Below are positions 1 to 21,940 of a stretch of DNA of 64,000 nucleotides, one piece after another. The notes beneath the pieces were generated by a model. That model worked only from the letters and a program-made list of their open reading frames with translations, was not told where the DNA came from and ran no database searches. The position numbers and the translations under genes were made by a program. Within the stretch, counting starts at the first letter, position 1; every line of letters starts with the position of its first letter. Origin of the DNA: Styela clava. Lineage: Eukaryota > Chordata > Ascidiacea > Stolidobranchia > Styelidae. Location: assembly GCF_964204865.1 (NCBI RefSeq), contig NC_135258.1, positions 21,665,083-21,729,082 on the forward strand, read 5' to 3'.

Positions 1-551
1 TTTGAGATGTGCTTGTAACATTGACTCCGTTCAATTGCAATGCTGACACTCCGATTATTTTTAAAGATAAAACCTCCTGAAAAATCCCTAAATCTGCTGT
101 AAATTCTCATGGAGTAAAATTTATTTCAGTACAATAAAAATTGATGGATATACTTCGGATTAATTATCTCATATATCATCACAAACCGGGGAAAAATCGT
201 GTTTTCAACCTTGTTTAATGATAACACGAAAATTTTCTACGACAATTTTAAAGTAATGGATAAAAGGCAAATCCCACCCACAATTAACCGTGTTTCGATT
301 TTAGTGACGGTATGTTCCTAAACGGCGACCAAACATAATGTGCGCCGTAAGCATGCGAAATTTTGCGATTTTGCGACTAGAAAAGCGTTTTTAGACTGTC
401 GCGGGACTCAACAAAACTGATATTGTTTACGGTTTTATTTTCAGTATTTTATAATGCCGCTTTTCAATCAAATTTAGATCGCGGTTTTACTCCTTTCGTC
501 TTTAGAACCTCGCCACCGATGAACGTATAATAACTCACGAATTCACAATTC
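1..551. other. Gene-free AT-rich sequence
   Basis: No reading frame, splice-flanked exon or recognisable repeat was found here. It abuts the tandem repeat that starts near 552. Confidence 0.4.
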
Positions 552-903
552 GGTGCAAAGTACAAAAATAAAATAATTATCATGTTTATCGTGGCACAAA
601 TTTATGATTTAGAAAGAATAAAAACCGACGTAAGGGTATTTACGGCCTAAATAACACGCTGATGAAAACATGGCGATTTTAGCAGATGGCAATTGCACGC
701 TTTTTCAGTTTTCACATTTCCGTGCGGGTACAAAAATAAAATAATTATCATTGTTCCCGCGGCACAAATTTGTGATTTGAATGGAATAAACACCAATGTA
801 AAGGGCGTTCACGGCATAAATAATATGCCGCGTTGATAAAAAACGAACGGCGATTTTAGCAGAAGGCAATCGCACGTGTTATCGGCAACTTTTTCACTTT
901 TCA
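552..903. repeat. Two-copy tandem repeat, unit about 170 bp
   Basis: Two diverged direct copies lie head to tail, at about 552-720 and 721-903. Both contain acaaaaataaaataattatc, then a cggcacaaattt-like block, a run of aataaa, and end in ggcgattttagcag followed by ggcaat(t/c)gcacg. The copies differ by substitutions and small indels, so the duplication is not recent. No coding potential is visible. It could be a local duplication or the inside of an unidentified element. Confidence 0.7.
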
Positions 904-1076
904 GAAAATTCAAAAAAAGGGGGGGGGGGGTTCGTGACTGGCATATCAGAATTGTGATGTAACAATGAGCTCAAGACAGTTCTTCCCGTGAATGAAATTT
1001 TATATTTCATTATTTTTAAATACCAGAGTTTAGAAGCTAAATTGAAACATTGGGAAAGCTGAAAATTCGTCCTTCT

Positions 1077-1165
1077 CCTCTTAGATTGACGACCTTGTCG
1101 CGACCCATTTTTAAACCTTCCGCGACCCATGTTTGGGTCGCGACCCATACTTTAAGAACCACTGG
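1077..1165 (-). mobile_element. Terminal fragment of a hAT-type element
   Basis: On the minus strand this reads cagtggttcttaaagtatgg followed by repeated gggtcgcgaccc blocks. That matches the terminus of the element at 49830-50348, which begins cagcggttcccaaactatgg and then gggtcgcgaccc. Only one end is clear. The opposite terminus was not found, so this is a truncated copy. Confidence 0.55.
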
Positions 1166-2074
1166 ATTAGAAGTTAGAACGGTAAACTCTCGTTGTTTAT
1201 CAAATTTAAAGTAAGTGAATTCGCGATATTTCGATCACTTTTGGGTTTTCTCCGACTTGCGGCCGCGAGACCTCTTCAAAAGTTTTTGCGGTCATTCAAC
1301 CTTGAACCACTGTGAGGTAGACTACTAGGTACCAGTAAAATTTCAAACTACAGTTGTACTTGTATCCTTTGGTATTTCGATTTAGGTTGAGACTGAAGGC
1401 ATGAATCTTTATTGTCACACTCCCTCAGGATTAGAGCTCAACCGATATATCGTCCCGATATTGCGTGTTTGCCGATGTATCATATCGGCAGTGAACGGCC
1501 GATATTTATATCGGCTATAACAGGTAAAAGCTAAAAATGTTCGTAAAAGTTGTTTTATTTACTGTTGCTGGTTGTGATTATTTTTAATGGATAATACCCC
1601 TATGTGGTTTATTGTTTTTATAATTAAATTACACATGAGTTGGGAACCAAAGTCTTCAGTGCTTAGGGCAACAAAGGGGTTTAATCCGCCCCTGCCTAAT
1701 CTATCCAGCTAATTTCGAATGCCCCTCTCAACAGTCTATTTCAGGGGTTCTCAACCTTTTTTTCTGTCAAGTACCCCCCGACCAAATCTGATCGTAATTT
1801 AAGAAGTTCGTCAAAAATTATTTCCACAAAAACAACAGAATCGCCCTGTCCATGCATAATATGCTAAAAATATTCAAGACCATTTGACGTTTCCTCTGGT
1901 TACTCGGTCCAAACCATTTCCAGTTAATAATGATTAAACGATGTGCTGGTATATGACACGCAGGTAACAAAAACGTGGGAATCGATAGACATACGTTGTG
2001 CATAACTACGCGTATTATCTGTGACAAGCTGTAATTATATGAAACAAAGTTAAAACTTACATGTCGTCTACAAC
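1166..2074. other. Intergenic sequence with faint transposon ends
   Basis: No gene is seen. About 1432-1520 is rich in CGATATATCGG-like words (ccgatatatcg, atatcggc), a pattern common in hAT miniature elements. At 1742 the sequence caggggttctcaacc looks like another hAT terminus. Neither has a convincing partner end, so neither is called as an element. Confidence 0.35.
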
Positions 2075-2082
2075 AGTATAAC

Positions 2083-2557
2083 CAGTGGTGGGATTCAAAT
2101 TTTTTGTCAGTCGGTTCCATCACAAAAGTCATATTTTTTTAGCAAACAAACTGATTATTTTTAATTACTTCCTAATTGACATTTCAAAGTAATGGTTAAG
2201 TAAGCATCATCATGTCAAAATTAGCATCGAAATTTTTGATGATGTTGAGGATCGTTTATATTGCTGTATATATTATATACTCGTTGATAATGAACTTAAA
2301 AACCTGAAGGTGTATGATCTATTGAAAACACACTACAGTTATAAAACTTAACACAATGTATAACAGTTACGTGCGAACTTGATCAACTCACATTTTGAAA
2401 CAAACACGTGAGCTACTTGATCTCATAAATCAGTGTTTCAGATAAGATGAAAAAATCCATTGACAGTAACTAGTAATGCTAACCGGTTCGCTGATCTCAT
2501 AAAATTCAATGAGACGGTTCTATAGAACCGGTGCGAACCGGCTGAATCCCACCACTG
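2083..2557. mobile_element. Non-autonomous hAT element with perfect 8-bp target duplication
   Basis: The 475-bp element starts cagtggtgggattcaaa and ends, on the opposite strand, cagtggtgggattcagcc. The terminal inverted repeats are therefore identical for the first 15 bases. It is flanked on both sides by agtataac (2075-2082 and 2558-2565), an exact 8-bp target site duplication as expected for hAT transposition. It has no transposase frame. The subterminal ggttc/gaacc words are shared with widely dispersed hAT families of this terminal type. Confidence 0.85.
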
Positions 2558-2644
2558 AGTATAACTATAACCTATTGTTTTGTGGTACAAAATTGGCCTA
2601 TGTATCGTTTTTTTCTGAATTGTTCTTCGAAACTGTAACAATAA

Positions 2645-3082
2645 CAGAGGTTCTAAAATGGGGTGACGCGGCGCACTGGTGATTTGCTAAGTGCGCCTCA
2701 AAATTAACAGAATTGTGTTAAACATGATTGATTGAATATTTTACATGTTGTATTTATCATAAATGTTTTATTATTTCTTATTTTAAACGCTATACTTATG
2801 AATCAATACATTCATATATTTATTTGCTGAATCAAGTTTATCGAACGGGAGGGATTTTTATATTTCGAAGGAAAATCAGGCAGATATAAGGAAGAAGAGT
2901 TCCCCCGAAGCATTCATTCTTTAGGCCTATACATACTTACAAACTTTAAAAGGCATGAAGTACACAATAACGATCACGAAATTGAGTTTTATTTAAAAGC
3001 AGCAATTTTTTTTGTTCAAGTGCGCGCTGTTCTCTATCCTGATTATTTTTGCGCCTAGTTACAAAAAGTTTGGGAACCACTG
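2645..3082. mobile_element. Probable hAT-like miniature element
   Basis: It begins cagaggttctaaaatgg and ends aagtttgggaaccactg, whose reverse complement is cagtggttcccaaactt. The ends are imperfect inverted repeats of hAT type. The words gtgcgc and gcgcc occur near both ends. The flanking octamers do not match, so the boundaries or the integrity of the element are uncertain. Confidence 0.45.
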
Positions 3083-3087
3083 GGAAT

Positions 3088-3420
3088 TTCGTTTTAACTT
3101 CGTGCTCATATATTTGAGCACTGTTCTCTTGTGGGACACAAAATGGACATACAGATCGATTCGTTATTATGTTTTAGTTATTAAAATTCTTGTTCTTGTT
3201 TTTTTTTTCTTATGAAGTACTGGGCAAATTCCTTTGCAATTTTCAATTGTCAAAGATTGTATTTTTTGATGGAAAGCTATGACTTTTATTTATTTCCAAA
3301 ATTTTTGTGGGCTTTAAGGCATTCGTATTTTTGGTGCGATGACGTCACCAAAGGGAAAGGTGCGCATCTTGTGGCGTTTTCCCGTTAGCGATCTGGTGGT
3401 CAGGCGGTATCGGTAGTCTA
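3088..3420 (+). repeat. Dispersed repeat family A, copy 1
   Basis: This block holds, in order, a word like ggacacaaaatggacata, a T-rich stretch, a region like caattgctttgcaattttca, tatgacttttatttatttc, a purine-rich segment, ttcgtatttttggtg and a gtggcg box. The same order occurs at 18110-18430. It also occurs on the minus strand in the flanks of the hAT at 35157-37879 and at about 60690-60800. No coding capacity is evident. The class is not identified. Confidence 0.6.
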
Positions 3421-3744
3421 CCGTGTTCCCACGAAAATAAGACTGGGTCTTAGTTCAATTGTTCTCCGAAAAATAACACTAGGGTTCATTTTTGGGGGGT
3501 GTCTTATATTTTCCATTTTAAAAAGACAAAATTCCAACGTAGAAAATTACGAGATTTTCAAAGATACAAAATTTAAAAAACGTTACCATTCCCCTATAAA
3601 TAACAAGTTTTTATTTAAAATAACTGCGAAACATAGATTATCAAGCATTTAAAACGTGTAGGAGAGATTTCCTGTATCGACTAGGTCTGGCGTTATTGAC
3701 TAAGTCTTATTTTAAGGGGAGGACTTATTTTCTGGGAAACACGG
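3421..3744. mobile_element. MITE with 23-bp inverted repeats and TA duplication
   Basis: The left end is ccgtgttcccacgaaaataa and the right end, reverse-complemented, is ccgtgtttcccagaaaataa. The dinucleotide TA flanks both sides. A TA duplication points to a Tc1/mariner-like or PIF-like mobiliser. It sits directly against the end of repeat A, which may have been its target. A degraded relative may lie inside the element at 49830-50348, near 50153. Confidence 0.7.
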
Positions 3745-4387
3745 TACTGTTACAGATTTGATAAGCGTACTACATTTTGGCGTTCGTTTTCATATATTTG
3801 CGAATCGCTCTCTTGTTTTATTTGTCACGCTAGCAAAAAAACAAACCTTTGACAAACAAGTTATTTTAAAGTTTTGAATCTACGGATATATTTTCATATA
3901 ATAAAACTGGGTAGGAACACATGGGTAATAGATTATGGAAACTGATATACCAAAGAGCTATATGCAATTTTACGCAAAGCTAAAAATAAAAGCAGAGTAA
4001 CTGAAAATCGTGCGAAAAATCTGAAAATTCTTTTTCTCTTTTTTTTATTTCTTCTTCATATGGGTCATCATACAAAATCAAATATATTCCTCTCCCAATT
4101 AGGGCAATCCATGACATGGAAACAATGCTTCTTTTTATAAAGTATTAGCGTTAATTAAATAGTACTTCTATACATTTCTTTTCTTCTGGCAAAAATGCAA
4201 TCATGACAGGTTTTGTTGAAATGCTTTTCATTGATTTTATTTTTTCTTCAATTACCACATTCGGCTCTAATTTTATAAATAAAACAAGAATACCTAAGAA
4301 TTTGCTACGCGAACTGAAGTATTTTACCAAAATCTGTATGGTTCACATTTGCGCTGAAATAGCCATATTCTATCAAATTTTCATATA

Positions 4388-4491
4388 CTAGCACCCTTGA
4401 GTGACGCATACCATATAGGCACACGAACCGCAAATCCATCTCTTATACTTCGCCCATTCAAATGATATGGTCTCACTACTCAAAGGTGCTG
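4388..4491. repeat. Short palindromic element
   Basis: The left arm tagcacccttgagtgacg pairs with the right arm, reverse-complemented cagcacctttgagtagtg, and a further ccatat block pairs in the same register. The arms are about 30 bases of a 104-bp unit. This is a fold-back MITE or hairpin remnant without coding sequence. Confidence 0.5.
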
Positions 4492-4499
4492 TATTTGCG

Positions 4500-4851
4500 C
4501 CTAAATTTTGATTTCATTGTTATGTATATTTAGTGTTGTGTTTTCTCTATTTATATATATTGTCTTGTCTTATAAACTCCCCTGTATGAACAGTTTTGTA
4601 TACTCCATCCTTACCACTTTCACTACACCAACCGACCCATTGCCCCACCTTGCACAACTGTCTATATAAGGGACCATATTATACATTTAATTTTTTGTTT
4701 TATATTTGTCAAAAGCGGTGCATGCCGCACATTTGTGTTTTGGGCCAGCACCGTCTTGTGCATACATCCCGTCTTGAATAATATTAATAATTGTTTATGT
4801 ATCACTATTACGAGACGGATAAACATACATACATACATTAAATTTTCGTTC
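4500..4851 (+). mobile_element. Possible LINE 3' end
   Basis: The segment ends with tgtttatgtatcactattac, gagacggataaa and then (acat)n. That arrangement resembles the 3' untranslated tail of CR1- or RTE-like LINEs, which often end in short tandem repeats. No reverse transcriptase motif is present, so the assignment is by tail shape only. Confidence 0.3.
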
Positions 4852-6079
4852 AAAAGTTTCGTTTCTTAGTCAAAAGAGAGAGTGACCTGAAAAATGACAG
4901 ATCATAGAAAATTTTCTCGCGGACTCTGCACTTTCGCTAAACGATGGATTATTCTATTTTAAATTTCTTTAGATTTAGAAGGTTGTTAAGTAAAAATCCT
5001 CGCAAAAGTACGTAGGGGCAAAACAACTGGATTTGGAACTCGATAGATCTTTGAAAACAAACGTGCTCCTGGTTTTCAATGAAGTCTATACCTAAACATG
5101 GAAGAAAGACACAAAGTCCGGCATTTGTATTACATTATCAACGAATATTTTCGGATTTGCCTATCTTTTAGTTATGACTTTTGACCTAATATGTTGTGAT
5201 TGTAGGTTATAGGTATGAAGTTCGGCATTCATAACAACCACCTTGCCTTTTTGCTTTATTTATATAGAAGAGTGGCTATCGCATACGTCGATGTGTTGAA
5301 GGATATCACAGGTTTGATAAATTAGGCTTTGTAAATCCAGAAAAATGCCGCATTAAATATCATACTAACAATGAGTCTTGCTTTTGAAAAAAATACCCGA
5401 TAAACCATATCAATGTGAATACCTATTTTTGTATTCCACAAAAATGAAAAATTATGGCTAGGTGCTCTCCCTAATTTTGTGGGATTCCGTGAAAATTTTT
5501 TAAGTTTTGAATCCTGTGTGCGAAGTCCAGACTAGCTGGGACCATTAGAATAATATTTTGTAGGGCAATATTTACGTCTTGATTGTCGGTTATACCTTTC
5601 ATCTCACCTTCTCATTCAGCACTGTGCTTGAACATAACTTCGAGACGTTCGACCATTTGACGCGTATTGCTACGAACGAACGCGTTTATTTTGGCCAATA
5701 TGTTTCCGTAGTGCTCATTCATAAAGTATTTTAAAAGATATTTAACTGTATACAAGAAACCCAATCTCGAATTCGAATTTTTTTGCTATTTATAATAACA
5801 ATATTTTAAAAACTATAAAGCGTTCCGGTAATATGTTTTGCCAATAAACCATTGTCGGACCTTGGCTGCGAACATATGAAGAATAGCCCACTATTCTTCA
5901 ACAGCCTTGTAACCTTTACTTGGAACAACAAAGTGTATATTCGACATCACAACTGACAAATTATTCTGTATCGTTTGTGTACGTACGCACCATCAAATAC
6001 CTTACAGTTAGTATAAAGATATTTTCTCGCCTATCAAAACTCATTGATGAGGTACAGAGATCTATACCAAAGAAAAAAA
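4852..6079. other. Gene-free intergenic stretch
   Basis: Short reading frames only. No splice-flanked conserved peptide or repeat was recognised. Confidence 0.35.
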
Positions 6080-6329
6080 GGTACTCATGTAGTATGTGAA
6101 CCAAGATGGAGGACACCGGAACGTAGTATGTGTACCAGGTTAGGGTTAGGCCATAATTTAAGGTACGAATACTACGGGAGTCTCTTGGCTAGTCCCCGAA
6201 CTCGTAATAGAACTAAAATAAGGAAAAGTGAAATAAAATTATGTCCTAACCCTAACCTGGTACACTGTGTACCGTACACATACTACGTTCCAGTATTTGT
6301 CATCTTGGTGCACATACTACGGGAGCGCC
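6080..6329. mobile_element. Palindromic MITE, family M, copy 1
   Basis: Long imperfect inverted repeats of about 80 bases flank a short centre. Each arm carries gtagtatgtg, ccaagatg, ggaacgtagtatgtgtac, ccaggttagggttagg and acataatt-type words. The centre holds agtccccgaactcgtaatag. Other copies are at 27883-27997, 33028-33259 and, truncated, 63190-63285. The ttagggttagg words belong to the element and are not telomeric. A spurious 106-residue reading frame covers this copy. Confidence 0.75.
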
Positions 6330-6358
6330 GAAAAAAAAAACGTTTTGTGAGCCGAATA

Positions 6359-6628
6359 TTATAAAATTACGCAACATTCGTCTTCAGGCTGCTTTAATGC
6401 TGGAATAGTGCGTAATTGCAATCGGCTAGTTTTCTTCTTCCGGCAACACAGAAAGAAGACTCGAAGGGATGATCTGTTTGGTGATTCTGGACGAAAAACA
6501 ATGTCTACCGAATCTTGGTCACGGTTTATTGAGTCTGTTATTGGTAGTTCTTGATGTGGAGACTGCCTTCCGAGTAATTGTTCTTCGGGGGCATCACGTT
6601 TGAACGTATATCTGCCGCTTTTAACGCC
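6359..6628 (-). CDS. Distal alternative last exon of the CaaX gene (89 residues)
   Basis: The acceptor is tttttcacag just above 6628. The exon enters in phase 0, like the proximal one, and also opens Gly-Val. It ends DECCVIL and TAA. The sequence between differs: it is basic and contains an internal FFLCCRKKK patch, whose Cys pair next to lysines could be an additional palmitoylation or membrane-binding site. Splicing exon 4 to this exon skips the proximal one and gives a 578-residue product. The shared start, phase and last five residues suggest exon duplication followed by divergence. An alternative is independent convergence on a CaaX end. Confidence 0.75.
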   Translation of the reverse strand, partial: GVKSGRYTFKRDAPEEQLLGRQSPHQELPITDSINRDQDSVDIVFRPESPNRSSLRVFFLCCRKKKTSRLQLRTIPALKQPEDECCVIL

Positions 6629-9600
6629 CTGTGAAAAACAAACACACACCGGGACTAAAATTCTATCTTATGATTTGTGTGAAGTTTTTATATTAATTCC
6701 TTAAGCTTACCTTCATATTGCGATCTTCAACATGGACAACCTAACTTTTAGATATCGTATTTTGCCTGCAAATATGTTATCCTCGTCAAGTCCTGCTGAC
6801 TAGTATCTCTATACTACGCTGCTGTGCATCACGTCGTATTTCCTGTTTGTCTATGCGCCTGTTCAGTACAGTAAACCATTGTGCATGATAATATAATACC
6901 GTTATGATCGAAACAGATACCAGGAACTAATGAGGACCAACACGCGTTCTATACGGTAGTCTTCAAGCATATGCGAATGCGATATGTCCATGAGCATCAA
7001 ATGACTTTCAATTAAATGATATAATTTGAAATCCTAGATCAATTGAAACGGAACGCTTTCTCTGTTTTCTGCATGGTGAAAACTTTCTAATAAAGTGTGA
7101 CAAGAATTCACAACCATTCATTTTTTCAGACAGATGCGATGACTAGGTTTATTATACTCACGCATGAATAGAATCCATCTAAATGGTGATATACTAGAGC
7201 AATGATTAAGTCATTATTTCGTGAGTCTTAATGAGAATGAATTAACGGATTTCACTTTAGTACAAAACCATCGCTTTGCTTATCTGGTGTATCACAAAAA
7301 CGAAGCGCTCACATTCCGATTTTCGACTCTATGCTCTTCGACTGTGGAAATTATGACTCAAACATACCCTACTCTACGACGGTGCATCTGTTTAAGATTT
7401 AGTCACTAAATCAGAACACCATTACCCATTATTACATTCGAACAATTTGAAGACACAAATGAAAAACACCGTTGCTTTTATTTCACTTTAAAAACAAAAA
7501 CAGACAATGACTGAAGTTGTGTCGTGAAAAAAAAACGTTAATTTCATAAAATTCTGATAAGACAGACAAGAACAAGAAGTATCGATTTCTTATCACATGA
7601 CCAAAAATAATGGAAAAAGTATGTATAACGTGCGTTACTAAAAGTTGTAAAAAATCGAATCCCTTCATTACCATGTTGTCGAATCGCGAAACATGTTTGC
7701 TATTTTAAACACTAAAGCCATTGAAATCCGACAATAACTATTGATTAAAGGATAGATCACATTATTAAATCGAATTTTTAAATAATTTCAAATCGAAACA
7801 AATAGTTTTAAAAACAAAATTTTATTACATTTATATCCATGTAGTGGCTCCAATTCGGGGTTTGCAACCGACTGGGGTAAAATGTAGAACCGTTATCATG
7901 CCGTTAATCATGCCGTTTTATAGAATTAAATTCATTTTCAGTGGTAAAATGTGAAACTTTATACAAATAAATGAAAACGTCAATTGGTCATTTGATTAAT
8001 AACTAACTGCGTTGTCGCCTGTAAAAAGCGAGTAGACCAAACACGGGTATTCCATGAATTTGTTATTTGAAATTTGCATCGAACTAAATGTCATAGAAAC
8101 TGTCACAAATCGTAAAAATTACGAAAATTCTTCAGTGTTTCTTCGTCACAATAACACAATACCTAGCAACAGATAGACAAGCCAACGAGTTATTATCCAA
8201 CACTGTAAAGTATACATACTTTACATACATTTTGAGACGACCATCCAGTTAAACATTGTCAAATTGTTATATCATGTCAGTTATCTAAAAAAGAATGGAA
8301 ACACATTGGATCAAATGTGTTCAATATGCTAAGCGGAACTGATTTATTTTTTCATCAAAATCTTAGATGAAAATATCCATTTTTAAATAATTTGGCAATC
8401 TTTTATTGTTTAGAATATGATTTTAGTTGGTAAAACCTGGATATGATTTAGATTTTGACTAATAAAACGTTGGCATAGAAAAGGGTTTAGAGAACTAAAC
8501 AAACTGGTTTTCTGTTATGTATAAAACTGAATTCCTGCGCCATTTCTACGCGGAGAACCACACTACATTTAGTAATACTATTTAATAATCTTTTAGAAAA
8601 AAAAATGGTTTTATAAAATGACACAGCAGCCTTTTTTTGCTTTATCGGGTGCTTCAATTTCTTCTCTAGACTCCGGTGTAGATTTTGTAGGTGCTTCTTC
8701 TAAAGGCACTTCTGCCAATTCCACATCCGGTGTAATTGCAGAGCCTCCTCGAGGTGGTTTAGTATGACCGTCTTTTTTTTCCGCTTTGGGTACGTTTTCC
8801 GTATTAGATTTGTCTGGTTCATTTTTCTGCACATCTACGCCCTATAAAAAGGGTAAGCAAAACAAAAACAAATTATTCATATAAGAACGATAAATATAAT
8901 AAGATTGTAGAATAACTTACTGATTTTGAAAGTTGTTCACTTTCCTGTGGTCGTTGTTCGGATTCTTCTATTTTTTCTTTGTCATCCTCAACAGCTTTTT
9001 CCTGTTCTGTAGTTTTTTGAGGTTCGTCCGTTATTTCTTCATTTTGATTTTTTGTTGTTTCGGGATCATCCCCCTGAGCAGTTTCAATCTCTTTTATATC
9101 AATAATTTCAGGTTCAGCTTCTTGTTTTTCTCCTGTTTCTATATTTTGACTTGTTTTTTGCAATTGTGTTTCTGTATCCGTACTAGTCTCAGCAGCAACT
9201 TCTTTTCGGTCTTCTTCTTGGTCACTACTACTGCTGCTGCTACTACTTGAAGAAGACGAGCTACTTTTTCTCTTGTTTTCATCATTGAGTTCCTTGAAAA
9301 TGAAAACGATTGCGAAAATAAAAGCGAAATATCATTTCATAAAATGCAGTTTAAAAATGCGCCATTACATACATACATTCAGCCTTAAGCCAACCTTGAG
9401 TATTTCGTGAAAACGCATTTTACCTACCTCAGATTGTTCCGCCCTCTTTTCTTCGGTTTCTGTTTCCTGTTCTGTTGTTGCCGGCGGTGGTGGAAGCTCG
9501 GCTACTTCAACGTCCAGTGTCGTGTCTTCAACTATGCTTGGAGGGGATGGCATGTCGCTTTGTTCTAATACCTGCGTTTCTATTGGCGGGACGGTAGGAC

Positions 9601-12600
9601 ACGGTACCTCAGTTTTTTCGGGAGTTGACCTAGAATCTTCTTGTTCTAAAGATTGAGGTGGTGGGGGTAGATTCCCCTCTTGTTCTTCTATGGGATCCGT
9701 AAAAAGATTAGATTGATCCTCCGGAGGAGGAGGGCTAGGAAGTTCAATTTCTTCTGGTGGTACCGAAATTTCTTCGGGTGGCGGAGGAGACGGTAACTCA
9801 TCCCCTGGAGATATTAGAGCTTCATCGGGCAGAGGAAGAGATTCTGGTGGTAATTCAACATGATCAGGGTAGGGAATCGCGTTTTCGTCGACTGGTGAGG
9901 TTGAAGTAACGTCTTCCGGGGGAGGGGGTAATGGTGGTGAAACCATTTCGCGTGGTGGGATTTCGGAGTCTGTTTCTTCAGTACCTATATTTTGATTTAT
10001 TTCCATTTCTACTTTATTCGAAAGTTTCTCGACTTCTTCACTTTCATTATTATCTTCTTGCTCTGATTTTTCCGGTACCGCTTCCGGGGTTTTACAGTCT
10101 CCATTTTCTTCATCACCATCATTTTTGATTTGCGCGATTTCTGGGACTGCTTCATTATTTACGTCATCATTTGTTTGTTTTTCCGATTCGTCTTCACTCT
10201 CCGAAGATGACGACGAAGATGAAGAAGACTCTCTCGGCCCTTGTTTCACGGGATCCGGGATGGGATTTTCAACAGCAGTAGATTCGACGACTCCACTCTC
10301 TATTTCCTCTGGTTCGACTGAAGTATTATTTTGCTCGGCATTCATCTCTCCATTTTCGATTGGTTGTTGTTCATCATCTTCGGCCGCTAAGATCAAAAGA
10401 GGAAAAAGATTTAGAGAATAAGAAATACGAGCATAATTACAATGTATATGTTCTTCTAGTCATTTCACCTTCCTTGTTATGACTGTAATAATTTGTTTGA
10501 TGTAAAGATTTGTTAGAGCCACAGCATAAAAGGCGGTATTTGTGTCTTCAAAATGTTCAAAGACAACTAATTTTTTTAACAAAACTTTACCAGATGAAAG
10601 CTGAACAGAAAACGCTCGGTACTTTCATAACCCAATCGCTACGTTTAATAGGTAAATATTTTCGCACTGACTTACTTGATTGTGTGATAGACTCCATAAA
10701 ATATATCGTTTATATTTTCAAATTTAAATATATATGAATTTTTTGAAACAACAATATTCCAATGAGCACATAATAAATTACTACATAATTGATCAGTTGT
10801 TTATTCATGTGAAAATCAATATTTTCTCTGGCATTAATTCAGGTTGTTACGCATTTTTTTTATTTGCGATTATTAGTATTGGACTGAAAGAGCAACCTGA
10901 TTATTCCTTCCGTTATTGATTTGGTTTCTGCGGGATCAACTACTTATCCTTCTTCTATGATTTTGTGCAGGTGGATACGTATGTACATAATATGAATGCG
11001 ATCAAGATTGAAGATAACTATTTTGAGTTTTTGAGGAGTCTTGCCGCACACTAACACAAATATATTTCCATCCACGATCGGACCTTGGTCAGATGTAACG
11101 TTACAGAAGTATATTTGTGTTAGTTTGCAGCAAAAACTTTCAAATCACTTACAGTGATTGTTTTTGTTTCGTTTTCGTATTTATACCACGAGCGATATTG
11201 TATGAATCATTTTTATTCTGCAACGTGACAGTAAAGCAAAATGTTAATTTAATGTTGCATTTTCGATTTCAATCTACAAAAATACTTTTCATTGTTCCAT
11301 ATAACGAACTATTCAAAATAATTATATCGATTGTTACCCTACAAGGTGAACTCATCATTAGACTAGGAACATAAACGGGTTTCTGATGACCTATATCGAA
11401 AATCAATTCTAATTAACCGTAGTTTCACGTCCAATATCATTGGTTATATTATATCGACATTACCGTCGTATCTGAAAATGTGACGTTTTCAAAAGACGGT
11501 ATGTGTACCAATTATTAGATATCATAAAAGTTCAACTTCCATTATCAAGAGTCACATTCATACTATGGCATGCATTCTAGGCCCCTATAGAGCATATAAT
11601 ATGGGACCCTTAGCTATATGGATATTTTCCCGTTTACTTCTGTAACATTAGCGAATCAGCAGGTTGCCAACTGTGACCTAACAATTAAAACTTTCGCCGC
11701 CACTCAGATATGTTTTCTACATAGACAGACTTTGTAGTCATATTAGTTCGTTTACGCAGTTCTGTTAGAGATATGCCAATTTTCAGCTGTGTTTACAACT
11801 TTTCGATGTAAACCAAATAAATCATGGGCAATTTGTGAAGTATTAGTTTGTTACAATAAACAACAATTCGTACCGAAATGCTGTCAGTTGTCAATACTTG
11901 ACAACGGCAGGTGATCAAAAAAGCTGCCTGTGAACATGTGAACCAGTTTCTTGACACCAACTCACGAAAACACTCGTAAAATGAGCATAAAAGTTTTGAA
12001 ATGATAAAAAATAGGAACAATGTTTTCTGGGGTGGAGTGACGGATGAACACCACTTGTGCAAGCAATTGTAAAAGCAAAGGCACGTAAGTAGCGTAAGGT
12101 GATCCCTGGCGAACTGGGAATGATTCTTAACATATTGAGCAGTGTGAAGTTCTATTTTTTTTTTGTTCGCTACTTCAATTTAATTTGTTTTGGATTTTAA
12201 TGCAATTACCTGAAGAGTTTTCGGTTGTGACCAACTCCGCTTTTTCTGTTGATTCTTTTTGAATTTGCAATGTTATTTCATATGATGACAGAGGCCTCCC
12301 ACCTTCCTGCAAAGCAGAATGTACAAACAAATAATAAACACGATTGCGGTAAGAAGTTATGCAATAATATTTATATCGGTTGATTACAAACTAGAAAGAC
12401 GTCATTGAATAAAAGTCAATTGGCCTATTTTTAAATCTAGATAAAAATATTTCTATATCCTAGAATTAAAAATGATGAGGTGTTTTACAATTCTCACCAA
12501 ACAGATTATAAGCAAATTCCGGAATGCTTCCAGTCGTCTCAATATTTTACCATTACTTGGCGAGGAGTGGGAAATGTCGTTTAAAATTCAAATTTACGTT

Positions 12601-15226
12601 ACAAAATTTCAAATATTGTCTAGTCTAGTTTCTTACTTTTTAGGATATATATATGAGATTCCGTACCTCGATCACAAAGCCTATACACTATTAACCGAAC
12701 GATTTCGATCAGAAGGAGACAATCATAAACTACGTAATATTTAAGCGGTTACAGTAAATGTTGTTTTCAAACAAAACTGACTTCTGAATAAGGTACTTAA
12801 TTATCGGCTTAGATTACCATCACGACATCAATACATTCATTTTTTGTTTTCATCTTCATAATTCATGCATTGCAGCAAGGAATAAATTTCAACAAAACTA
12901 GCATTTCATTTTGCGGTCATAGACATGTTGGTGAAATGAAATATAGGACGGCACCGTAACCAAATGTACGACATTTACATCGTACGTTTGACTTCAAATG
13001 ATTTCAGGAACACCGATATTAAGCTATGAAATGTCAAAGACTACTCTTAGTTTCGGTCAAATTTATTAAAATGAGATATAAATAGTGTATACTACTAAGG
13101 CTGTAGCAACAGTCCCGTATTCATAGAATACATCATCTGAAGAGTGTTGATTGGTTATATGTATAAAATGCGAATGTACGACTAAAACCTTTTGTACTTG
13201 TTTAAATATTCAGGACAAACCCTAATCGTTCGATTTGCTAAAAAATTTAAATTACGAGTCTAGCAAGATATATTACTCCAGGACGCAGCATAAATTTCGG
13301 CCAAGATTATTTTATCCATACACTATTCATGAGCTTAGATTTTATCAATAACTCAAGCAATTTTGACCCATGTGAGCAATGTAAGTGCTATATAATATTG
13401 TTGCATGGTCATTAATAAATTATGTGTAATTGGAATTCATCAATGCACAATCTATATATTATAATGTGATCCAAAGTGACACGTTATGTGTTTTGTGACA
13501 CAGATATAAACTTGTTTTTATTTATCAGCAGTTTTATAATCCTGTGTCAAAATCCCATGACTTGGTTATCTATTATCACACGTTGCCGTCGTTTTAATAA
13601 CAACAAGCATACAAGTTTTGATGCAGGGATAATATTCTCGCATTGTACCGCATTCTCAGTGTTGAATAAATATTGCTACATCGGAATTACGTGAATGTTT
13701 GTGTCTCTGATTCACACAATGCCGACGTCAATTTCAATAGGCAACATGCTGATATAACATTAAACCCAAGCAATGCAATTTTATAAACGATATTTCGGAT
13801 AACCCGTGTACGAGTATGATCAATTATTAAACGGTAATATTATTCATGTTAGGTAAAATGAAAAATACTTGCTGTTTTTAGTAAGTTTGTTATTGATTTT
13901 ACGATGTATTGTTAGGATGAATAAAAACCTATGCCACCTGCAACTTCCTCTGTTATAAACAATAACAATGAAGAATATACATATATATATATATACTAAA
14001 ATGCAAAAACAACGAAGTAGATTACGTATTTGTTCTGAAGGCACATTTAGACGCACTACACTTTTCAATATACACCACTTTGTAGTTTTACTAGTTTACA
14101 ACTTTACGTGTCGTTGTTATCAACCTTTGCATTGAAGGGAACATTGCATTTTTGCAAGATTTAGTTGTTTCTAGAACCACATATTTACGTGAATACCATT
14201 GCAAACAATAGCATCTTGGTCAAATGTTTGTGTTGCAAAATCAATCACACTCGTTGGATTTAGTTCACAAACATAGCTCAGTAACTTCCTGGCCTCGTAT
14301 GACGTAATCTCCTGTCGCATTCATACATTGTGTCCATTGCACGTAGTATTAGATCATGCAGCTTTAACGTGTTTGCGTTTTAACATTTTCCATTTTGCGT
14401 TGGTACTTGTGAAACTTGCCAATAGGAGATTTCTAAGTAACTGTGACAGCCTTACTAGAACATGGGTGTGTGATGGAAAACAAAAATTAAACATTTTGTA
14501 TCAAATCATTAATTTTTCGTCACAACAAAAAGCATACAAAATTCATAGTCTTTCATAATGGAGTAAGTAGCCCTCTGAGATCTCATATTTTTCTCTCATT
14601 GAAGAATAGACGTCTCGATAGCCATATGCTCGATATCGGCCGCGAAACAATGACGCCATATGGAACTGGTGGATTTTGAATTGGAAAACTGTCTATTGGC
14701 ATAATCATCTGTCAACTGAACGATGTACCAAATTGTCTACCTAACTCGAATATATTTTGCAGTTTTTACAACTTGTGATAAAAGCCGAACAGTATCTTTT
14801 CGTGTTCAGCCTATCCTATAGGAACATGTCGCGGATAGTATTTGTAAATTACGACAATCTATTCTATTTTGATCTCTTATCGCTTATAAATTTATAGTGT
14901 TGATTTCGTTCTGCAGAAAGGATAATTTTTCGGCCTTTCGGCAATAAAATAATTCGGACGAGTAAAAAGTAGTTTCGATGTAATGAACTGCCACGGTATT
15001 GAGCATGTAGCTGTAGTCTCTACTTGATGCCACAAATTTTCAATTCATTGCGAACGGAACACGCGTGGCATTTTAACGAGTTTATTCAGCAATGTGATTT
15101 AATTGAATTAAGACAAATATTATTTTCAATATTTCATTTGATAACTGAAACATAAACCATGCTACCAAATTAAAAAAAGAAACTTACCGTTTTGGCTTGA
15201 AGATTCGAAACCGTTGGATCCTCCAT
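6359..15226 (-). CDS. Acidic CaaX-terminal protein, five-exon gene with two alternative last exons
   Basis: Coding exons, each bounded by GT and AG, are 15226-15188, 12306-12210, 10386-9428, 9292-8921, and then either 8841-8611 or 6628-6359. Phases are 0, 1, 0, 0, and every junction keeps the frame. The products are 565 or 578 residues. The start ATG at 15226 opens with MEDPTVSN. The protein is dominated by Glu, Asp, Ser, Gln and Pro, with no predicted globular domain, signal peptide or membrane segment. A nine-serine run lies at about residues 99-107, a proline-rich region with PPPP clusters at about 195-345, and a 14-serine run at about 375-388. Mixed serine codons argue for selection on the amino acids rather than triplet expansion. 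The C-terminus is CCVIL, a CaaX box whose final Leu favours geranylgeranylation, preceded by a Cys that could be palmitoylated. Membrane anchoring is inferred. Paralemmins share acidity and a Cys-Cys CaaX end, but I see no paralemmin coiled coil. The family remains unidentified. Confidence 0.8.
6629..8610. other. Sequence between the two alternative last exons
   Basis: Intronic or 3' untranslated depending on isoform. AT-rich; no further exon or element was recognised. Confidence 0.4.
8611..8841 (-). CDS. Proximal alternative last exon of the CaaX gene (76 residues)
   Basis: The acceptor is a pyrimidine-rich tract ending in tatag at 8842, and the exon opens in phase 0 with Gly-Val-Asp-Val. 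It encodes a hydrophilic Lys/Glu/Pro-rich tail and ends KKGCCVIL followed by TAA. The last six residues before the CaaX box carry lysines, a common companion of prenylated membrane anchors. An ATTAAA on the minus strand lies about 25 bases past the stop, at 8581-8586, and could serve as the polyadenylation signal of this isoform. Using this exon gives the 565-residue product. Confidence 0.8.
   Translation of the reverse strand, partial: GVDVQKNEPDKSNTENVPKAEKKDGHTKPPRGGSAITPDVELAEVPLEEAPTKSTPESREEIEAPDKAKKGCCVIL
10387..12209. other. Intron 2 of the CaaX gene
   Basis: AT-rich intron on the minus strand. Apart from the hairpin element at 11040-11135, nothing is recognised. Short reading frames here lack conserved motifs. 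Confidence 0.5.
11040..11135. repeat. Hairpin MITE
   Basis: The left arm ttgccgcacactaacacaaa and the right arm, reverse-complemented ttgctgcaaactaacacaaa, enclose about 50 bases. A half copy (gctgcacactaacacaaata) recurs at about 53309-53330. It is a small fold-back element within the intron. Confidence 0.65.
12307..15187. other. Intron 1 of the CaaX gene
   Basis: AT-rich intron of 2.9 kb with a short (AT)n run near 13980-13998. An extra unrecognised exon cannot be excluded, but none is needed for phase continuity. Confidence 0.45.
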
Positions 15227-17180
15227 CGTTGAAACGTATAATTCCGGCTTCAGGACAAACTAAACAATGTTTTCAAGTATGTCAAGGAGTTATGATACCA
15301 TTACATAAATCGCTACATTTAAAGTTGCTGGCATAATATGAGACAAGTAGAAGGTTTTATTTTTGTGCCATCTTCCCTTTGTCTATGGCTTGTCCGGCTA
15401 TGAATTCCTACAATTTGCATTATATCATATTTTCTGTTAGTGTCCACTTTCCTCAATTGGATAATGAAAATAATTTCACGTGGTAAAACTGAACAGAAGT
15501 CGACACATAAATAATATCTACAATACTATTCTGTATAATCATGCGACAGACACTTTCTTCACTTTTTGAAACGATGTCGTTTTATTGACATAGCAAACGT
15601 AATTATTGATTTTATTCATTCACGTAGGTTCTACATACTCAATATCGCATTTACATGCATATCGTATTAGATACATAAACCAATGTTCGGTCATGGTGAA
15701 AATTTGGAATCATTTCTATCAATCGGATGTTTCTAAATAACCATCTGCCTGTCAGTAAACACTCATATCTCGTTAGCTTGAATTACAACGGCGTCACGAA
15801 ATGTAGTGGTAATTGACGATGCATCCCTATTGAAAATGTTGCACGTCAGTAAAGTGCAGCAATCTCAACACCAATGCCCATCCTATTAATTGGTGCTCAT
15901 TTAAAACAATATTATATCTTTATTTAGTACATTTACATTGCTAAACTCTGAGTCGGTATGTATATTATTTAACCAATGACCAACAACTGAATAAAGCAAT
16001 AGTAAGCACATGCTCGTTGTCTGCGTTGGAAAACAAGAACGTCTACCAAACCTATTCCCAAGTCGTAAGTCCTGAAATTCGCATGCGACCACAAGCAGTT
16101 ATTTTTAAATCTAACTGCGCGGGAAACATAGCCTGTGATAATACGCCACTCGGGATTAAAACATTTCCGCCTAAATGGAACGCTGTGTAAAACACAAGCG
16201 CATGCTGGGCATGCCAGCAAAACCGAAACGACGACACCCCGACACGTAGTGTTTAACCGTATATTTACATCAACAGCCATTTGCTTATTTCAAAGAATAA
16301 TGATATTGATTTTAAGTCAAAGAAGCTACTTTTTGAATGATCGCTACACTGATTATACTGTTATGCAGCAGACCTTGAGATCGATATATAATTATGCAGA
16401 TATATTGTACGGCACTTATAATTATATATATATATGCATAGTGGAGTAATACTTGAATTGACAACGCAGGGAATTATGATATAGTTTTACGGTGTGATTT
16501 TTCGAATAGTTTACACACAATAACACGTAAAACAATGCAATAAATTTATCGTAGTACGACCCATGCTTCCAACTGTTAAGAAACCTTTAGCCATTGCAGC
16601 GATGCTTAAACTGCGCAAAGGCCTTAAATTTAAACGCGTTTGTGCTGGCAGCGTTCGAAATATATCAACATCGTCGCACAGAAAAAAAAATATTATACTT
16701 CTTGTGGGCGTTGTTTTTGCAATAATCGATATTTTATCATTGGATTGAGCTTACTTTACGCTGATATAGTTGCATATGTCAACCTTATAATTAAGATATT
16801 AAGAACTGAAAATTTGTATGCTGCTGAAGCGCCCTGTAGCGGATGATGATTTTTACACTTCGCATCGTTTCAAGATTTTCTACAAGATCTTTTCATGGTG
16901 GAAATTTTACTGTTAACATGAAACTTCAATGGGAACTTTCAACATGTCTAGATGACAGCTGGAAATAAATTACGTGACTGGAAGTTTGTCTCAAGCGGTG
17001 GTTTCGAACCTGGGTTCGGTGAAAGCCCTGGGTTCGATTGAGTTGTCGCGGGTGTCCGGCGATAATCCTATGAAATTTTTGATATGTTGGAGTTATTTAG
17101 CATGTAATACCGTACCGTAATTCCGCGACTTTAAAATCCAATTATACCATCTTTTTCAATAGTTGTGACGATTTCACCCT
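15227..17180. other. Upstream flank of the CaaX gene
   Basis: The 5' untranslated sequence of exon 1 continues upstream of 15226. The promoter position is not clear. A CpG-richer patch at 16070-16250 contains cgcatgcgac and gcgcatgc, which resemble NRF-1-type palindromes, and could be an upstream promoter. This is a guess. No coding exon was recognised. Confidence 0.25.
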
Positions 17181-17189
17181 ATTCAATAC

Positions 17190-17375
17190 AACTAAGGCAG
17201 AACTGGTGGATGCATGGCGATGTGCGTTAGGTACACTTAGGTGCACTTGTCATCGCAGCAACGATTACCTCGCGTAAGGTAATTATGTGCGACAGAATTA
17301 ATGGCCTTTTCGCCATCGCAGAGTGGATCACCCAGGTCGGTTGTGGCCTTGCACGTGAGATGCTAAACTGGTAAA
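17190..17375 (+). mobile_element. Degenerate tRNA-derived SINE copy
   Basis: The block ttatgtgcgacagaatta, cctttt(c)gccatcgcagagtgg and caggtcggttgtggcctt parallels the body of the SINE at 34407-34742 read on its own strand (ttatgtgcgagaggatt, cctcgccgtc, ctggtcggttacggctt). The tRNA-like head at about 17195-17250 is degraded. Old copy. Confidence 0.5.
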
Positions 17376-17379
17376 TTAA

Positions 17380-18105
17380 TTGTTTATGTATATATACTCA
17401 TGTTGTAAGTTCACTTGTAACCGGTCCTTATTTCTTCCTATCATGAAGTCGTCATGACAGTTTTACTGACACCAAAGGTAAATTTGACAAGCTATGAAAA
17501 GAGAGTCCGATTTAATACTAAAATCCTATATATATACATCATTCGATTACTCTTTTGCGACTCTTTTTCACAACAGTGTATTATATTACATACGGAAAAT
17601 GACGTTTGAAAATTCCAAACGACATAGAAATTTTATTACATTTTCATAATATTCTTATATATATTAAAACATCATTTTCTCCACACAATTCAAGTTCAGG
17701 CACTTATATATACAGACACATTCGAATATTTGCATGAGCGTATATAGAGCGTATGTTTGTCTATTCCAGCGGCAAAGATCTAGCCTGCTGTTATATCATG
17801 TTGTTATCATTTGTGTTGGCGTCAAACTATCAAATACAAGACTTAAGCAGCATATTTAACTGATTTAGATTAAAAACAGTATTATACAGCGTAGTTCCCA
17901 AAAAACGAGACCATTATTTACTTCTATGAAAATGAAGAAAATTATTTAATTTTGTCCATGCTTGAACTTCTGTTTGCGTATGTTTGTACCCAAAAGCGTC
18001 GGAAAATCCAGGACGTCTTGCACAAAAATTATGTTGTTTCTGGAATTTATTCCAAATGCTCTTCTCGACCTTGAGGAAAGAATTGCATTTTTCTCGCAAC
18101 ATTGT
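17380..18105. other. Gene-free stretch
   Basis: AT-rich. A 23-base word near 17960 (gcttgaacttctgtttgcgta) recurs inverted near 21437, so part of this is repeat-derived. No exon was seen. Confidence 0.35.
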
Positions 18106-18109
18106 CAAT

Positions 18110-18430
18110 CATTCTTCTTCGGGTATTTCTCTTTTTTGGACACGAAGTGGACATAACGATCGTTTCAATATTATGTTGTTGTTGTTGTTGTTCTTGTTCT
18201 TTGACACGTTTTTAAAAAGTCGCTTTTCTTTTCGAATTCTGGACCAATTGCTTTGAAATTTTCAGTAGTTGAAGATAAAATTTTTCTCCAGAAGGCTATT
18301 ACTTTTATTTATTTCAAAATTTCCTGTGGACTTCGAGAGATTCGTTTTTTGTGTTCAAAGAAGTGGTCAGAATAAAAAATAGTGACACCTTGTGGCGATT
18401 GCGCGAAGGCATATCAACTGAGAAGCGATC
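18110..18430 (+). repeat. Dispersed repeat family A, copy 2
   Basis: Same block order as 3088-3420: ggacacgaagtggacata, a T-rich stretch, caattgctttgaaatttt, tacttttatttatttc, gtggacttcgagagattcg, then a gtggcg box. Sequence identity is moderate. Confidence 0.6.
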
Positions 18431-18699
18431 GTAATTCTTGCTCCGCTAAGAGTTGTTTATGGGGAATCGAGATGTTTGGGGTTACCGGTACCCGCAATGC
18501 AGCAATGCAACGGTTTGCGATAACTTCTTAGCTAGTTGACTATTACTACAGCTTCGCTTGGTGACCATATATTTGTTGACTGCGGTATTTACTGTTATCA
18601 GTTGGTATTTCAAATTATTTCTCAATAAACTCGAAAGGTTTTTGAGGATAGGTCAAACTACCGGTACTGTTTCGCTCGGTGTTCAATCAATCAATCAAT

Positions 18700-18925
18700 G
18701 TTCACTTTCCATATATTTCAGTATTTGTAGACTGTGGTTCCCGTGTTAAGCGAAAGTGATACCGGTACCGGTACGATAGCTGGGAAAGCTATGACAGTCC
18801 CTGTGGCCTGTACGGCACGTACCGGTACCGTTTACAGGTTTACGTACCGTCTTACCGATACCGAAGTCCGTTACGGTACGTACCGGTACAGCTGTACAGG
18901 TACGATATGGGTAGACTAGTACAGT
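18700..18925. repeat. GGTAC-rich low-complexity palindromic tract
   Basis: Many overlapping ggtaccggtac, gtaccg and cggtac words occur, self-complementary throughout. They are followed by an inverted repeat, actagtacagtattactgta with ctag, at about 18913-18940. Isolated ggtaccgg words occur nearby at 18485 and 18660, and again at 27765. No coding meaning is likely. Confidence 0.6.
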
Positions 18926-19206
18926 ATTACTGTACTAGTTGCATTAATTATATTTGTTTAGAGTGTGTGCCTGCATTGAAATTAAGTTTTTGTAATGAGC
19001 CAGCATGTCTGCACAACCAGACAACTGCTATGTCTTTCTAATTTTTCGCTGTTTCGTTACATTTTTTTGGAAACAACATTTGCATAAATACGTATGGTAC
19101 CGTATGCAGAGGAAGAAACTTCACAAAAATTTCAACATGTGCAGCAGGTTAGCGTACATAAATCAGTAAATACAGAAATATGCAGAGGAAGAGACTTTAC
19201 AAAAAG

Positions 19207-19385
19207 GATAAGATTTACATAATTATCCCGATGAAGAGGAAAGCCTATAGAACGGCTTAACCATATTGCGAACCACAGCCTCTTGTCTGGTTACCGGTAA
19301 GGTACCATTCCAAGTCTGGTATGGCTGTATAGGATTAGTTAGTTATTTGTTTTTGGAAGCATGGATTTGATTAGTTTAAGTGGCC
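19207..19385 (-). mobile_element. Truncated SINE copy
   Basis: Read on the plus strand it has ggataagatttacataattatc, gaggaaagcc, acggctta, gcgaaccac and ccattccaagtc, in the same order as 34407-34560. The tRNA-derived head is missing. It lies between two copies of the USP-like tandem exon and was probably inserted into that array. Confidence 0.6.
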
Positions 19386-19449
19386 AGCATATCAAATGTC
19401 TAATAGTGAAATATATTTCATATTTTCGCTATTTTATCTTTTCCCTTCT

Positions 19450-19540
19450 TTCTTACAGTTTTGCTGGAAACAACAGATAGGCTAAGGAGAAAGCATTACA
19501 ACTTCTCCAATAATTTTCAACGAGATACACAGGTAAGTAA
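19450..19540 (+). pseudogene. Degenerate copy of the USP-like exon
   Basis: After cttacag comes ttttgctggaaacaacagat, then gaaagcattacaac, ctccaataattttcaac. This parallels the exon at 19686 (ttctgctgtaaacaacataa, gaagcattataac, tttccaatagtgttcaac). It ends at a consensus donor, caggtaagta. A weaker relative may lie at 19050-19150. Confidence 0.5.
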
Positions 19541-19578
19541 GTCTAAGTGACGCAGCATATCAAGTTCATTCCATTTAC

Positions 19579-20334
19579 ATGTTTACTACTACCATACCTG
19601 CATCTGCACATAAACTTATTCTATTTCACTTGTATGCCTGCAAATATGCCCTGTTCATGCTCATCTTTTTGCTTTTTTGTTACAGTTCTGCTGTAAACAA
19701 CATAAATATGCCAAGAAAGAAGCATTATAACCTTTCCAATAGTGTTCAACATGTTCTGAAATATGGTGGCCGAGGTCTTTCCAATACAAAGAATATTTGC
19801 TGGGTTAACAGTGTGTTACAAATATTGGTTCGGCTTCCACTTCATGTACAACATGATTTTCGCTTGTGCTCAATAACACAAGTATGTAATTTCTGCAAGC
19901 TGATATCTCTAAGACGTAGAATGCTATATTCACCAGCTAAAGCAACAAGACGTATTTCAGCATATGAATTTTCTCTGTTTGCTCACGATTTCCATGCTAG
20001 GCCATTTGAAATGTTTGATGCTGCTGAATTTCTGAGCATGATTTTATCTAAGATTACAGATGACCAAATTAGGTACCATAATGAAGTTGCTAATACCCTC
20101 CGTTCTATGTGCCTTTTCTCAGCATCCATTTTTGAACGGTGTTGCTGTGGTGAATATTCTCGTATCCTCAGTGCAATGACATTTAACATTTTCAATTTCA
20201 ATCAGGGAGAAAATTCCGAGGACATTTTAAATCATCAAGAAGAAATATGTCACAAATGCAATTCTCTTAAATGTGTTAATTATTCATATAGTACATTGCC
20301 TTCTTTTTTCATTTATTGCAATTTGCAGAGTTGA
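19579..20334 (+). pseudogene. USP-like (ubiquitin-specific protease) fragment
   Basis: The frame contains a USP Cys box, GGRGLSNTKNICWVNSVLQ, at about residues 63-81 with the presumed nucleophile Cys74. It also has DAAEFLSMIL at about 147-156, as in the USP fold, and Cys clusters at 188-190 and 224-227 that could be a zinc ribbon. Family knowledge: USPs hydrolyse isopeptide bonds of ubiquitin using Cys, His and Asp/Asn. The frame stops before any His box, and no continuation was found, so this is a truncated gene, a single exon or a decayed copy. A splice acceptor (ttttgttacag) lies at about 19686, and the likeliest native start is the Met of MPRKKHYNLSN (about 19708). The upstream residues are probably intronic read-through. 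Confidence 0.5.
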
Positions 20335-20829
20335 TCATTTAGCTCGTCAAGTGCAATATTTTTCATGCTATATGTGTGAGAGCTATTATTGACATATTCT
20401 AATAAGTGGGAGTGGAGAATGTACTAGCATTGTCAATGTCTGATATTTTTCATGGTTTGAATACAATGTCTTCAGTCTTATATTAAACTTTGAGTTATAA
20501 CACCGATGGTCCTTACCAATGAACAACTTCATAAAACATGCTGTTTTCGTGAGTCCGGTTTTGAATGATTGAGTTCATTTAAATTTATAGTGTAACATCA
20601 AAAACTGACTGATGTAAGTATCGCTGGATTTATTTCAAAGACACTTATGACAGATGAATTTTTCTGTTGGTAATCTGATCATATGTCAGCATCTGCACAA
20701 GTTTATAATGTTCTCCACTATTTTTATGAGTCAATGACGTAGGTATGTGCCAAATCATATCAAGTTTATTTACATGTTTACTCTTACTGCATTTGCAGTC
20801 AAATTAACTTATTCCATTTTTTTGTACGC

Positions 20830-21641: not shown

Positions 21642-21646
21642 ACGTG

Positions 21647-21831
21647 TGTTGTGTATGTTAGTATTGTGACGTAATAATAGCGTCTGGGTCTACTCGACGC
21701 AGACGCGTAATAATGGGATTCGAGTTGGCTGTTTTTTACGTGATGGTACTGTTTTGCTGCTAAGATTAAAGACTATTCCATTCATACGAACAACGTGTCT
21801 ATTTGCCTCCAATATAATAAGGGACATGACA
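21647..21831 (+). repeat. 5' LTR
   Basis: 185 bp, TG...CA ends. Against the 3' LTR I count three substitutions (about 1.6%). Confidence 0.95.
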
Positions 21832-21850: not shown

Positions 21851-21940
21851 TGGATTGTGAATAAGTCAAATTGAAAACGGTGTTAACGCTGCAAAAACTA
21901 CCAGTCAAAAGAAGCTTCAAAGCATTTGCGGAAAAGTGTC

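What the first reader, a model, noticed from the sequence alone, without database searches (positions are those of the whole stretch)
6359..8841. Two alternative last exons that both encode an identical CCVIL lipidation end
Seen directly: both exons follow an AG acceptor, are read in phase 0 from the same upstream donor at 8921, begin Gly-Val, and stop right after CCVIL. Everything between differs: a hydrophilic Lys/Glu/Pro tail versus a basic tail with an extra CCRKKK patch. Known precedent: CDC42 switches between two terminal exons to change its lipid anchor. Inferred: the gene swaps the membrane-proximal linker while keeping the same prenyl/palmitoyl anchor, perhaps to change membrane compartment or partners by tissue.
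Basis: partly seen in the sequence, partly recalled or inferred. Interest (0 to 1): 0.75.

Follow-up and report, generated by a model that had tools for sequence, protein, structure and literature searches.

The report
Two possible last exons, same lipid-anchor
A gene for an acidic, proline-rich protein appears to have two alternative final exons with different tails but the same predicted fatty membrane anchor at the very end, an arrangement already known from KRAS and CDC42; whether the second exon is really used needs RNA data.

Summary
The sequence observation holds exactly. On the minus strand, donor 8921 (phase 0) can join in frame to 8841-8611 (76 aa) or 6628-6359 (89 aa). Both begin Gly-Val and end CCVIL-stop, the only two CCVIL-stop sites in the window's six frames, against 2.7e-4 expected on the minus strand of 1-8610. 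Three of five CCVIL codons differ silently and the middles are not alike, so this is no fresh copy. The distal exon looks coding, modestly.

The gene reconstructs as five exons, 565 or 578 aa: acidic, proline- and serine-rich, with no GTPase domain, Pfam family or relative found. Best reading: an old, diverged duplicate of the last exon, used alternatively, swapping the linker and adding an FFLCCRKKK patch while keeping the CVIL anchor. KRAS4A/4B is a closer analogue than CDC42.

Main rival: the strongest donor between the exons (6711, 8 of 9 consensus positions; 8921 has 6) follows ATG-AAG in phase with the distal exon, so that exon could end a 91-aa protein from its own start. No transcript data or relatives were available; splicing and the tunicate origin remain untested.

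The parts
15188..15226 (-). E1, likely first coding exon (MEDPTVSNLQAKT), donor ACG|GTAAGT, phase 0; the frame is open upstream to 15259, so the true start is uncertain
   Evidence: inferred from splice sites and frame only
12210..12306 (-). E2 (EGGRPLSSYEITLQIQKES...), acceptor TTTGCAG, donor CAG|GTAATT, ends in phase 1
9428..10386 (-). E3, 959 nt, acidic, proline-rich (3 LPPPP and 2 LPSPP stretches) with a 9-Ser run; donor GAG|GTAGGT, phase 0
8921..9292 (-). E4, 372 nt (124 codons, phase 0 at both ends), 14-Ser run, acidic; shared donor TCA|GTAAGT at 8921 (6 of 9 consensus positions)
8611..8841 (-). E5a, proximal last exon: GVDVQ...KKGCCVIL-stop, 76 aa, net charge -4; ATTAAA at 8586 and AATAAA at 8407 and 8348 downstream
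6359..6628 (-). E5b, distal last exon: GVKSGRY...FFLCCRKKK...PEDECCVIL-stop, 89 aa, net charge +4; first AATAAA or ATTAAA downstream of the stop at 5690
6711..6716 (-). ATG-AAG directly before a strong donor (AAG|GTAAGC, 8 of 9 consensus positions), in phase 0 with E5b across an 82-nt intron: candidate own first exon of E5b (rival reading)
6080..6336 (.). Inverted-repeat (MITE-like) element starting 23 nt past the E5b stop; 79%-identical copy at 33022-33258

Best explanation
One gene with two alternative last exons. The common part (E1-E4, 489 aa) is a very acidic, probably disordered, proline- and serine-rich protein. Splicing from 8921 to 8841 gives a 565-aa protein with an acidic-to-neutral linker before GCCVIL. 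Splicing from 8921 to 6628 skips that exon and its poly(A) signals and gives a 578-aa protein with a basic linker carrying a second cysteine pair (FFLCCRKKK) before ECCVIL. Both ends should be geranylgeranylated on the CVIL cysteine (Leu at the last place, recalled rule), with the adjacent cysteine open to palmitoylation. The distal form could add a second palmitoylation/polybasic contact about 25 residues upstream, holding the protein more firmly or at another membrane. E5b most likely arose by an old duplication of the last exon, of which only the first two codons and the lipidation signal stayed recognisable. Shown: reading frames, splice-site consensus, identical ends beyond chance. Inferred: use of either junction, common descent, lipidation, membrane choice.
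For: Phase-0 compatibility with donor 8921 and consensus acceptors for both exons, with pyrimidine fractions of 0.83 and 0.72 against 0.72, 0.89 and 0.72 for E2, E3 and E4. CCVIL-stop twice only in six frames against 2.7e-4 expected on the minus strand of 1-8610. Three of five CCVIL codons and the Val codon at the start differ silently while the residues are kept; this excludes a fresh duplication, though the silence itself follows from having picked identical residues. Both begin GGC-GTN. E5b has a coding-like profile: GC by codon position 0.52/0.42/0.34, and 0 of 3000 nearby intron windows reach its codon score. Between the exons (8610-6668) the minus-strand frames of 50 aa or more are three, two overlapping at 7486-7704 and one running over the end of E5a, and by eye none looks like the front of a second long gene.
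Against: No transcript evidence. The shared donor at 8921 is the weakest of the gene (6 of 9 consensus positions; E1 8, E2 8, E3 7), while the candidate donor at 6711 scores 8 and has an in-phase ATG. The middles of E5a and E5b show no similarity (local score 20, shuffle mean 26.0, 962 of 1000 shuffles at least as good), so common descent rests on the ends alone. E5b's true frame beats its other two forward frames only slightly in codon score (0.143 versus 0.125 and 0.077), the window control partly reflects its higher GC (0.43 versus 0.33), and the background codon table came from the same introns that supplied the control windows. The first AATAAA or ATTAAA past the E5b stop is 669 nt away, at 5690.
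Confidence: 0.58

Rival explanations
1. E5b is the last exon of a transcript with its own start inside the gene: an internal promoter (or spliced-leader addition) before 6716 and an 82-nt intron give a 91-aa protein, MK-GVKSGRY...CCVIL, sharing only the lipid anchor with the long protein.
For: In 8610-6629 one donor reaches 8 of 9 consensus positions, at 6711, directly after ATG-AAG and in phase 0 with E5b; of the 6 donors with 7 or more it is the only one with an open in-frame ATG. In 2000 Markov sequences of the same make-up, 22 had such a donor plus ATG 50-200 nt before the acceptor. A plausible acceptor (CATATTTGCAG) lies 55 nt before that donor.
Against: The start is only two codons long and was picked after the fact; anywhere in the interval 250 of 2000 Markov sequences had such a pair. 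A short frame (MLKIAI-stop) overlaps the ATG. It does not by itself explain why E5b opens with Gly-Val in the same phase as E5a. No promoter evidence was sought.
Confidence: 0.24
2. E5b is a relic: a duplicated last exon that is no longer, or hardly, used.
For: No AATAAA or ATTAAA for 669 nt past the stop; a mobile-looking element lies 23 nt past the stop; no expression evidence.
Against: An 89-codon frame without a stop, an intact acceptor and an intact lipidation signal despite complete divergence of the middle.
Confidence: 0.13
3. Chance: an unrelated open frame that happens to end in CCVIL.
For: The lack of similarity in the middle; 101 loose CaaX-like ends occur in the six frames.
Against: Expected count 2.7e-4 for CCVIL-stop alone, before asking for an acceptor, phase and an 89-codon frame.
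Confidence: 0.02

Closest known systems
KRAS4A / KRAS4B alternative last exons
   Same: Two last exons used by mutually exclusive splicing after a phase-0 intron give different hypervariable linkers before a CaaX end (passages of PMC9882654); KRAS4A has palmitoylation that KRAS4B lacks (abstract opening of PMC4696201 in the listing); a second signal in the linker stabilises membrane binding (passages of PMC8479197).
   Different: KRAS encodes a GTPase and its two CaaX boxes are not identical (recalled). Here no GTPase domain is found, the last five residues are identical, and both forms carry the adjacent cysteine.
CDC42 v1 / v2 terminal exons
   Same: Alternative terminal exons at a lipidated C-terminus (passages of PMC4745753).
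   Different: CDC42 changes the anchor itself (CVLL versus CCIF) within the last 10 residues plus residue 163; here the anchor is kept and tails of 76 and 89 residues are exchanged.
Paralemmins (PALM1-3, PALMD)
   Same: Proteins that are not GTPases (recalled) with a prenylated and di-palmitoylated C-terminal cysteine cluster in PALM1-3; PALMD has an alternative last exon H (passages of PMC3405040).
   Different: No paralemmin motif found in the window and no paralemmin family in the Pfam scan of the model; the PALMD exon H replaces the anchor by KKVI instead of keeping it. The paper reports no paralemmin hit in Ciona.

Membership tests
KRAS/CDC42-type alternative lipidated last exons | One upstream donor in frame with two terminal exons | tested here: met
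   (sequence only)
KRAS/CDC42-type alternative lipidated last exons | Each terminal exon encodes a complete CaaX end with a different linker | tested here: met
KRAS/CDC42-type alternative lipidated last exons | Both transcripts are made | not testable with these tools
   no RNA data held
Ras superfamily | GTPase domain upstream of the tail | tested here: not met
   Pfam scan of the 565-aa model at E up to 10 listed only IMUP (0.047, below its cut-off); all three minus-strand frames of 8500-22000, stops read as X, listed no GTPase and nothing above a cut-off
Paralemmin | Paralemmin motif KX[KR]XXR[ED]XWL[ML] (PMC3405040) | tested here: not met
   three relaxed patterns gave no match in six frames of 64 kb; a motif split by an intron would be missed
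Paralemmin | C-terminal CaaX with neighbouring cysteine | tested here: met

The most novel reading that the evidence does not exclude
An undescribed, perhaps lineage-restricted, membrane-tethered acidic/LPPPP scaffold that uses tandemly duplicated last exons to exchange its whole membrane-proximal linker, adding a second acylated basic patch, under a constraint that kept the five-residue lipidation signal identical while the rest diverged completely: a KRAS4A/4B-like switch evolved independently outside GTPases.
Probability: 0.38. Interest if true: 0.55.

Novelty: new member of a known kind. Interest (0 to 1): 0.38.

Why it matters
If both exons are used, the pair is a natural experiment on what the linker next to a lipid anchor does, with the body and the last five residues held constant. 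KRAS already offers something close, so the gain is a case outside GTPases, with an exactly identical anchor and a much longer exchanged stretch. It would suggest that this switch can arise independently in an unrelated scaffold.

Tried and rejected
Searched and found nothing: relatives of the 565-aa model among 5.8 billion proteins, 7992 candidates scored, none at E<=0.001; residues 490-578 of the 578-aa model, 20 candidates, none at E<=1; residues 1-60, 8 candidates, none at E<=1; Pfam on the 565-aa and 91-aa proteins and on the minus-strand frames with stops as X (one search repeated one frame, so the third frame was scanned); solved structures, best E 0.57 for the distal tail and 0.14 for an N-terminal piece, the latter an alignment of acidic/serine sequence to ARMC4 that weakened to 0.75 with another cut and is taken as composition. 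Rfam gathering scan of the window: 0 matches.

Considered and rejected: a small GTPase gene (no domain); a paralemmin (no motif), although the tail looks alike; a second full tandem gene copy (no such frame of 50 aa or more in 8610-6668; tblastn of E3, E4, E5a and E5b against the window found themselves plus one 23-residue hit of E 0.20; E1 and E2 were not queried); a coding 55-nt exon ending at 6711 (stops in the needed frames, read by eye). A 30-nt microexon before 6711 (VVHVEDRNMK) is formally possible but its acceptor lacks a pyrimidine tract; not pursued.

Structure prediction was not run: the common part is low-complexity and no alignment could be made.

For that the best reading went from 0.62 to 0.58, the rival from 0.20 to 0.24, and the novel case from 0.40 to 0.38.

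Full report
OBSERVATION. On the minus strand an exon ends at 8921 with a complete Ser codon followed by GTAAGT. The frame continues without phase shift at 8841 (after CTTTTTATAG) or at 6628 (after GTTTTTCACAG). Both start Gly-Val; one stops after GCCVIL (last base 8611), the other after ECCVIL (last base 6359). CCVIL-stop occurs at these two places only in the six frames of the window. A first-order Markov model of the minus strand of 1-8610 expects 2.7e-4 such strings there, and 0.004 in 64 kb on both strands. The identity is not chance.

THE GENE. The rest was reconstructed from splice sites and phase: E1 15226-15188, E2 12306-12210, E3 10386-9428, E4 9292-8921, giving 489 aa before the tail and 565 or 578 aa in all. 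The junctions are GT-AG and the joined frame is open. E1 is the least certain part, since its frame is open upstream to 15259. The common part has net charge -100, 60 prolines, 132 Asp/Glu, two long serine runs, three LPPPP and two LPSPP stretches and no Trp. LPPPP beside acidic residues recalls EVH1-binding sites (recalled, not tested). No Pfam family passes its cut-off, and three protein searches found no relative; that database draws on public genomes and metagenomes, and how well it covers the animal group in question was not tested. E4 is 372 nt with phase 0 at both ends, so E3 could also join either tail directly.

THE TWO TAILS. E5a: 76 aa, net -4. E5b: 89 aa, net +4, with FFLCCRKKK about 25 residues before the end. 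Between Gly-Val and CCVIL they are not alike: local score 20, shuffle mean 26.0, 962 of 1000 shuffles at least as high. The last 18 nt match at 15 positions and the three mismatches are silent; since identical residues were picked, their silence is expected, but it shows that the match is not a recent copy. A short T-rich stretch just past both stops is also alike (family D5), which is weak. E5b has a coding-like profile: GC by codon position 0.52/0.42/0.34, falling as in E3, E4 and E5a; 0 of 3000 windows of nearby introns reach its codon score. Against that, the true frame beats its other forward frames only slightly (0.143 versus 0.125 and 0.077), GC content contributes, the background table was made from the same introns, and the coding table was trained on eight open frames of the window, seven of them mobile-element-like by eye.

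HOW IT MAY WORK. CVIL should direct geranylgeranylation (recalled rule), with the neighbouring Cys open to palmitoylation, in both forms. The distal form would add a second acylatable pair beside basic residues, like the second signal described for Ras tails (PMC8479197, passages). Use of E5a would go with its poly(A) signals (ATTAAA 8586, AATAAA 8407 and 8348); skipping it lets transcription reach E5b, whose first AATAAA or ATTAAA past the stop is at 5690. The weak shared donor (6 of 9 consensus positions) would suit a regulated choice, but equally counts against the junction. Lipidation and choice are inferred.

THE RIVAL. In 8610-6629 six donors match 7 or more of 9 consensus positions and one matches 8: the one at 6711, which follows ATG-AAG and is in phase 0 with E5b across 82 nt. 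In Markov sequences of the same make-up such a pair lay 50-200 nt before the acceptor in 22 of 2000, and anywhere in the interval in 250 of 2000. A 91-aa protein from an internal start is therefore a serious possibility. I hold it less likely because E5b shares phase and first residues with E5a, which a duplicated last exon explains, but only transcript ends can decide. The two are not exclusive.

COMPARISON. KRAS is the nearest parallel in action: two last exons after a phase-0 intron with different linkers. A survey of 167 Ras-superfamily members, in a preprint, reports that of nine further genes with C-terminal alternative splicing only CDC42 behaves like KRAS (PMC9882654, passages). CDC42 alters the anchor itself (PMC4745753, passages). 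Paralemmins have a prenyl-palmitoyl end, and palmdelphin has an alternative last exon, but one that drops the anchor; their defining motif was not found here (PMC3405040, passages). Of six paper searches, four were aimed at lipidated alternative last exons or tunicate prenylation: 16 of 16 papers listed; 20 of 719; 15 of 153; 10 of 102. In these listings, of which I saw titles and abstract openings, no paper was on this gene or on identical CaaX ends from two last exons. That is a capped sample, not proof of absence.

LIMITS. No RNA, no related genome, no species name. The request to search the window's own genome did not complete (9 of 9 calls). The tunicate attribution was neither confirmed nor refuted.

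Noticed in passing
6080-6336, copy at 33022-33258: Inverted-repeat element (arms 6084-6135/6274-6325 and 6130-6159/6236-6265) starting 23 nt past the E5b stop, 79% identical to a second copy, with shorter pieces at 63225-63281 and 27925-27973, so probably mobile.
   Followed up: partly
8487-8699, minus strand: A second frame overlapping the end and 3' flank of E5a ends in CLVL-stop, a CaaX-like end; probably chance, since 101 loose CaaX-like ends occur in six frames.
   Followed up: no
21887-25773, plus strand: Series of long open frames that read like a gypsy-type retroelement by eye; not tested against a library.
   Followed up: no
35299-37639, 46096-46797, 49121-49486, 54139-56057, plus strand: Frames that look by eye like hAT-type transposases, split over several frames.
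   Followed up: no
19537-20331, plus strand: 265-aa open frame resembling by eye a ubiquitin-specific protease, with a partial similar frame at 20743-21078.
   Followed up: no
9428-10386 (E3), minus strand: Five LPxPP stretches, most followed by acidic residues, suggestive of EVH1/Ena-VASP or SH3 ligands (interpretation recalled).
   Followed up: no
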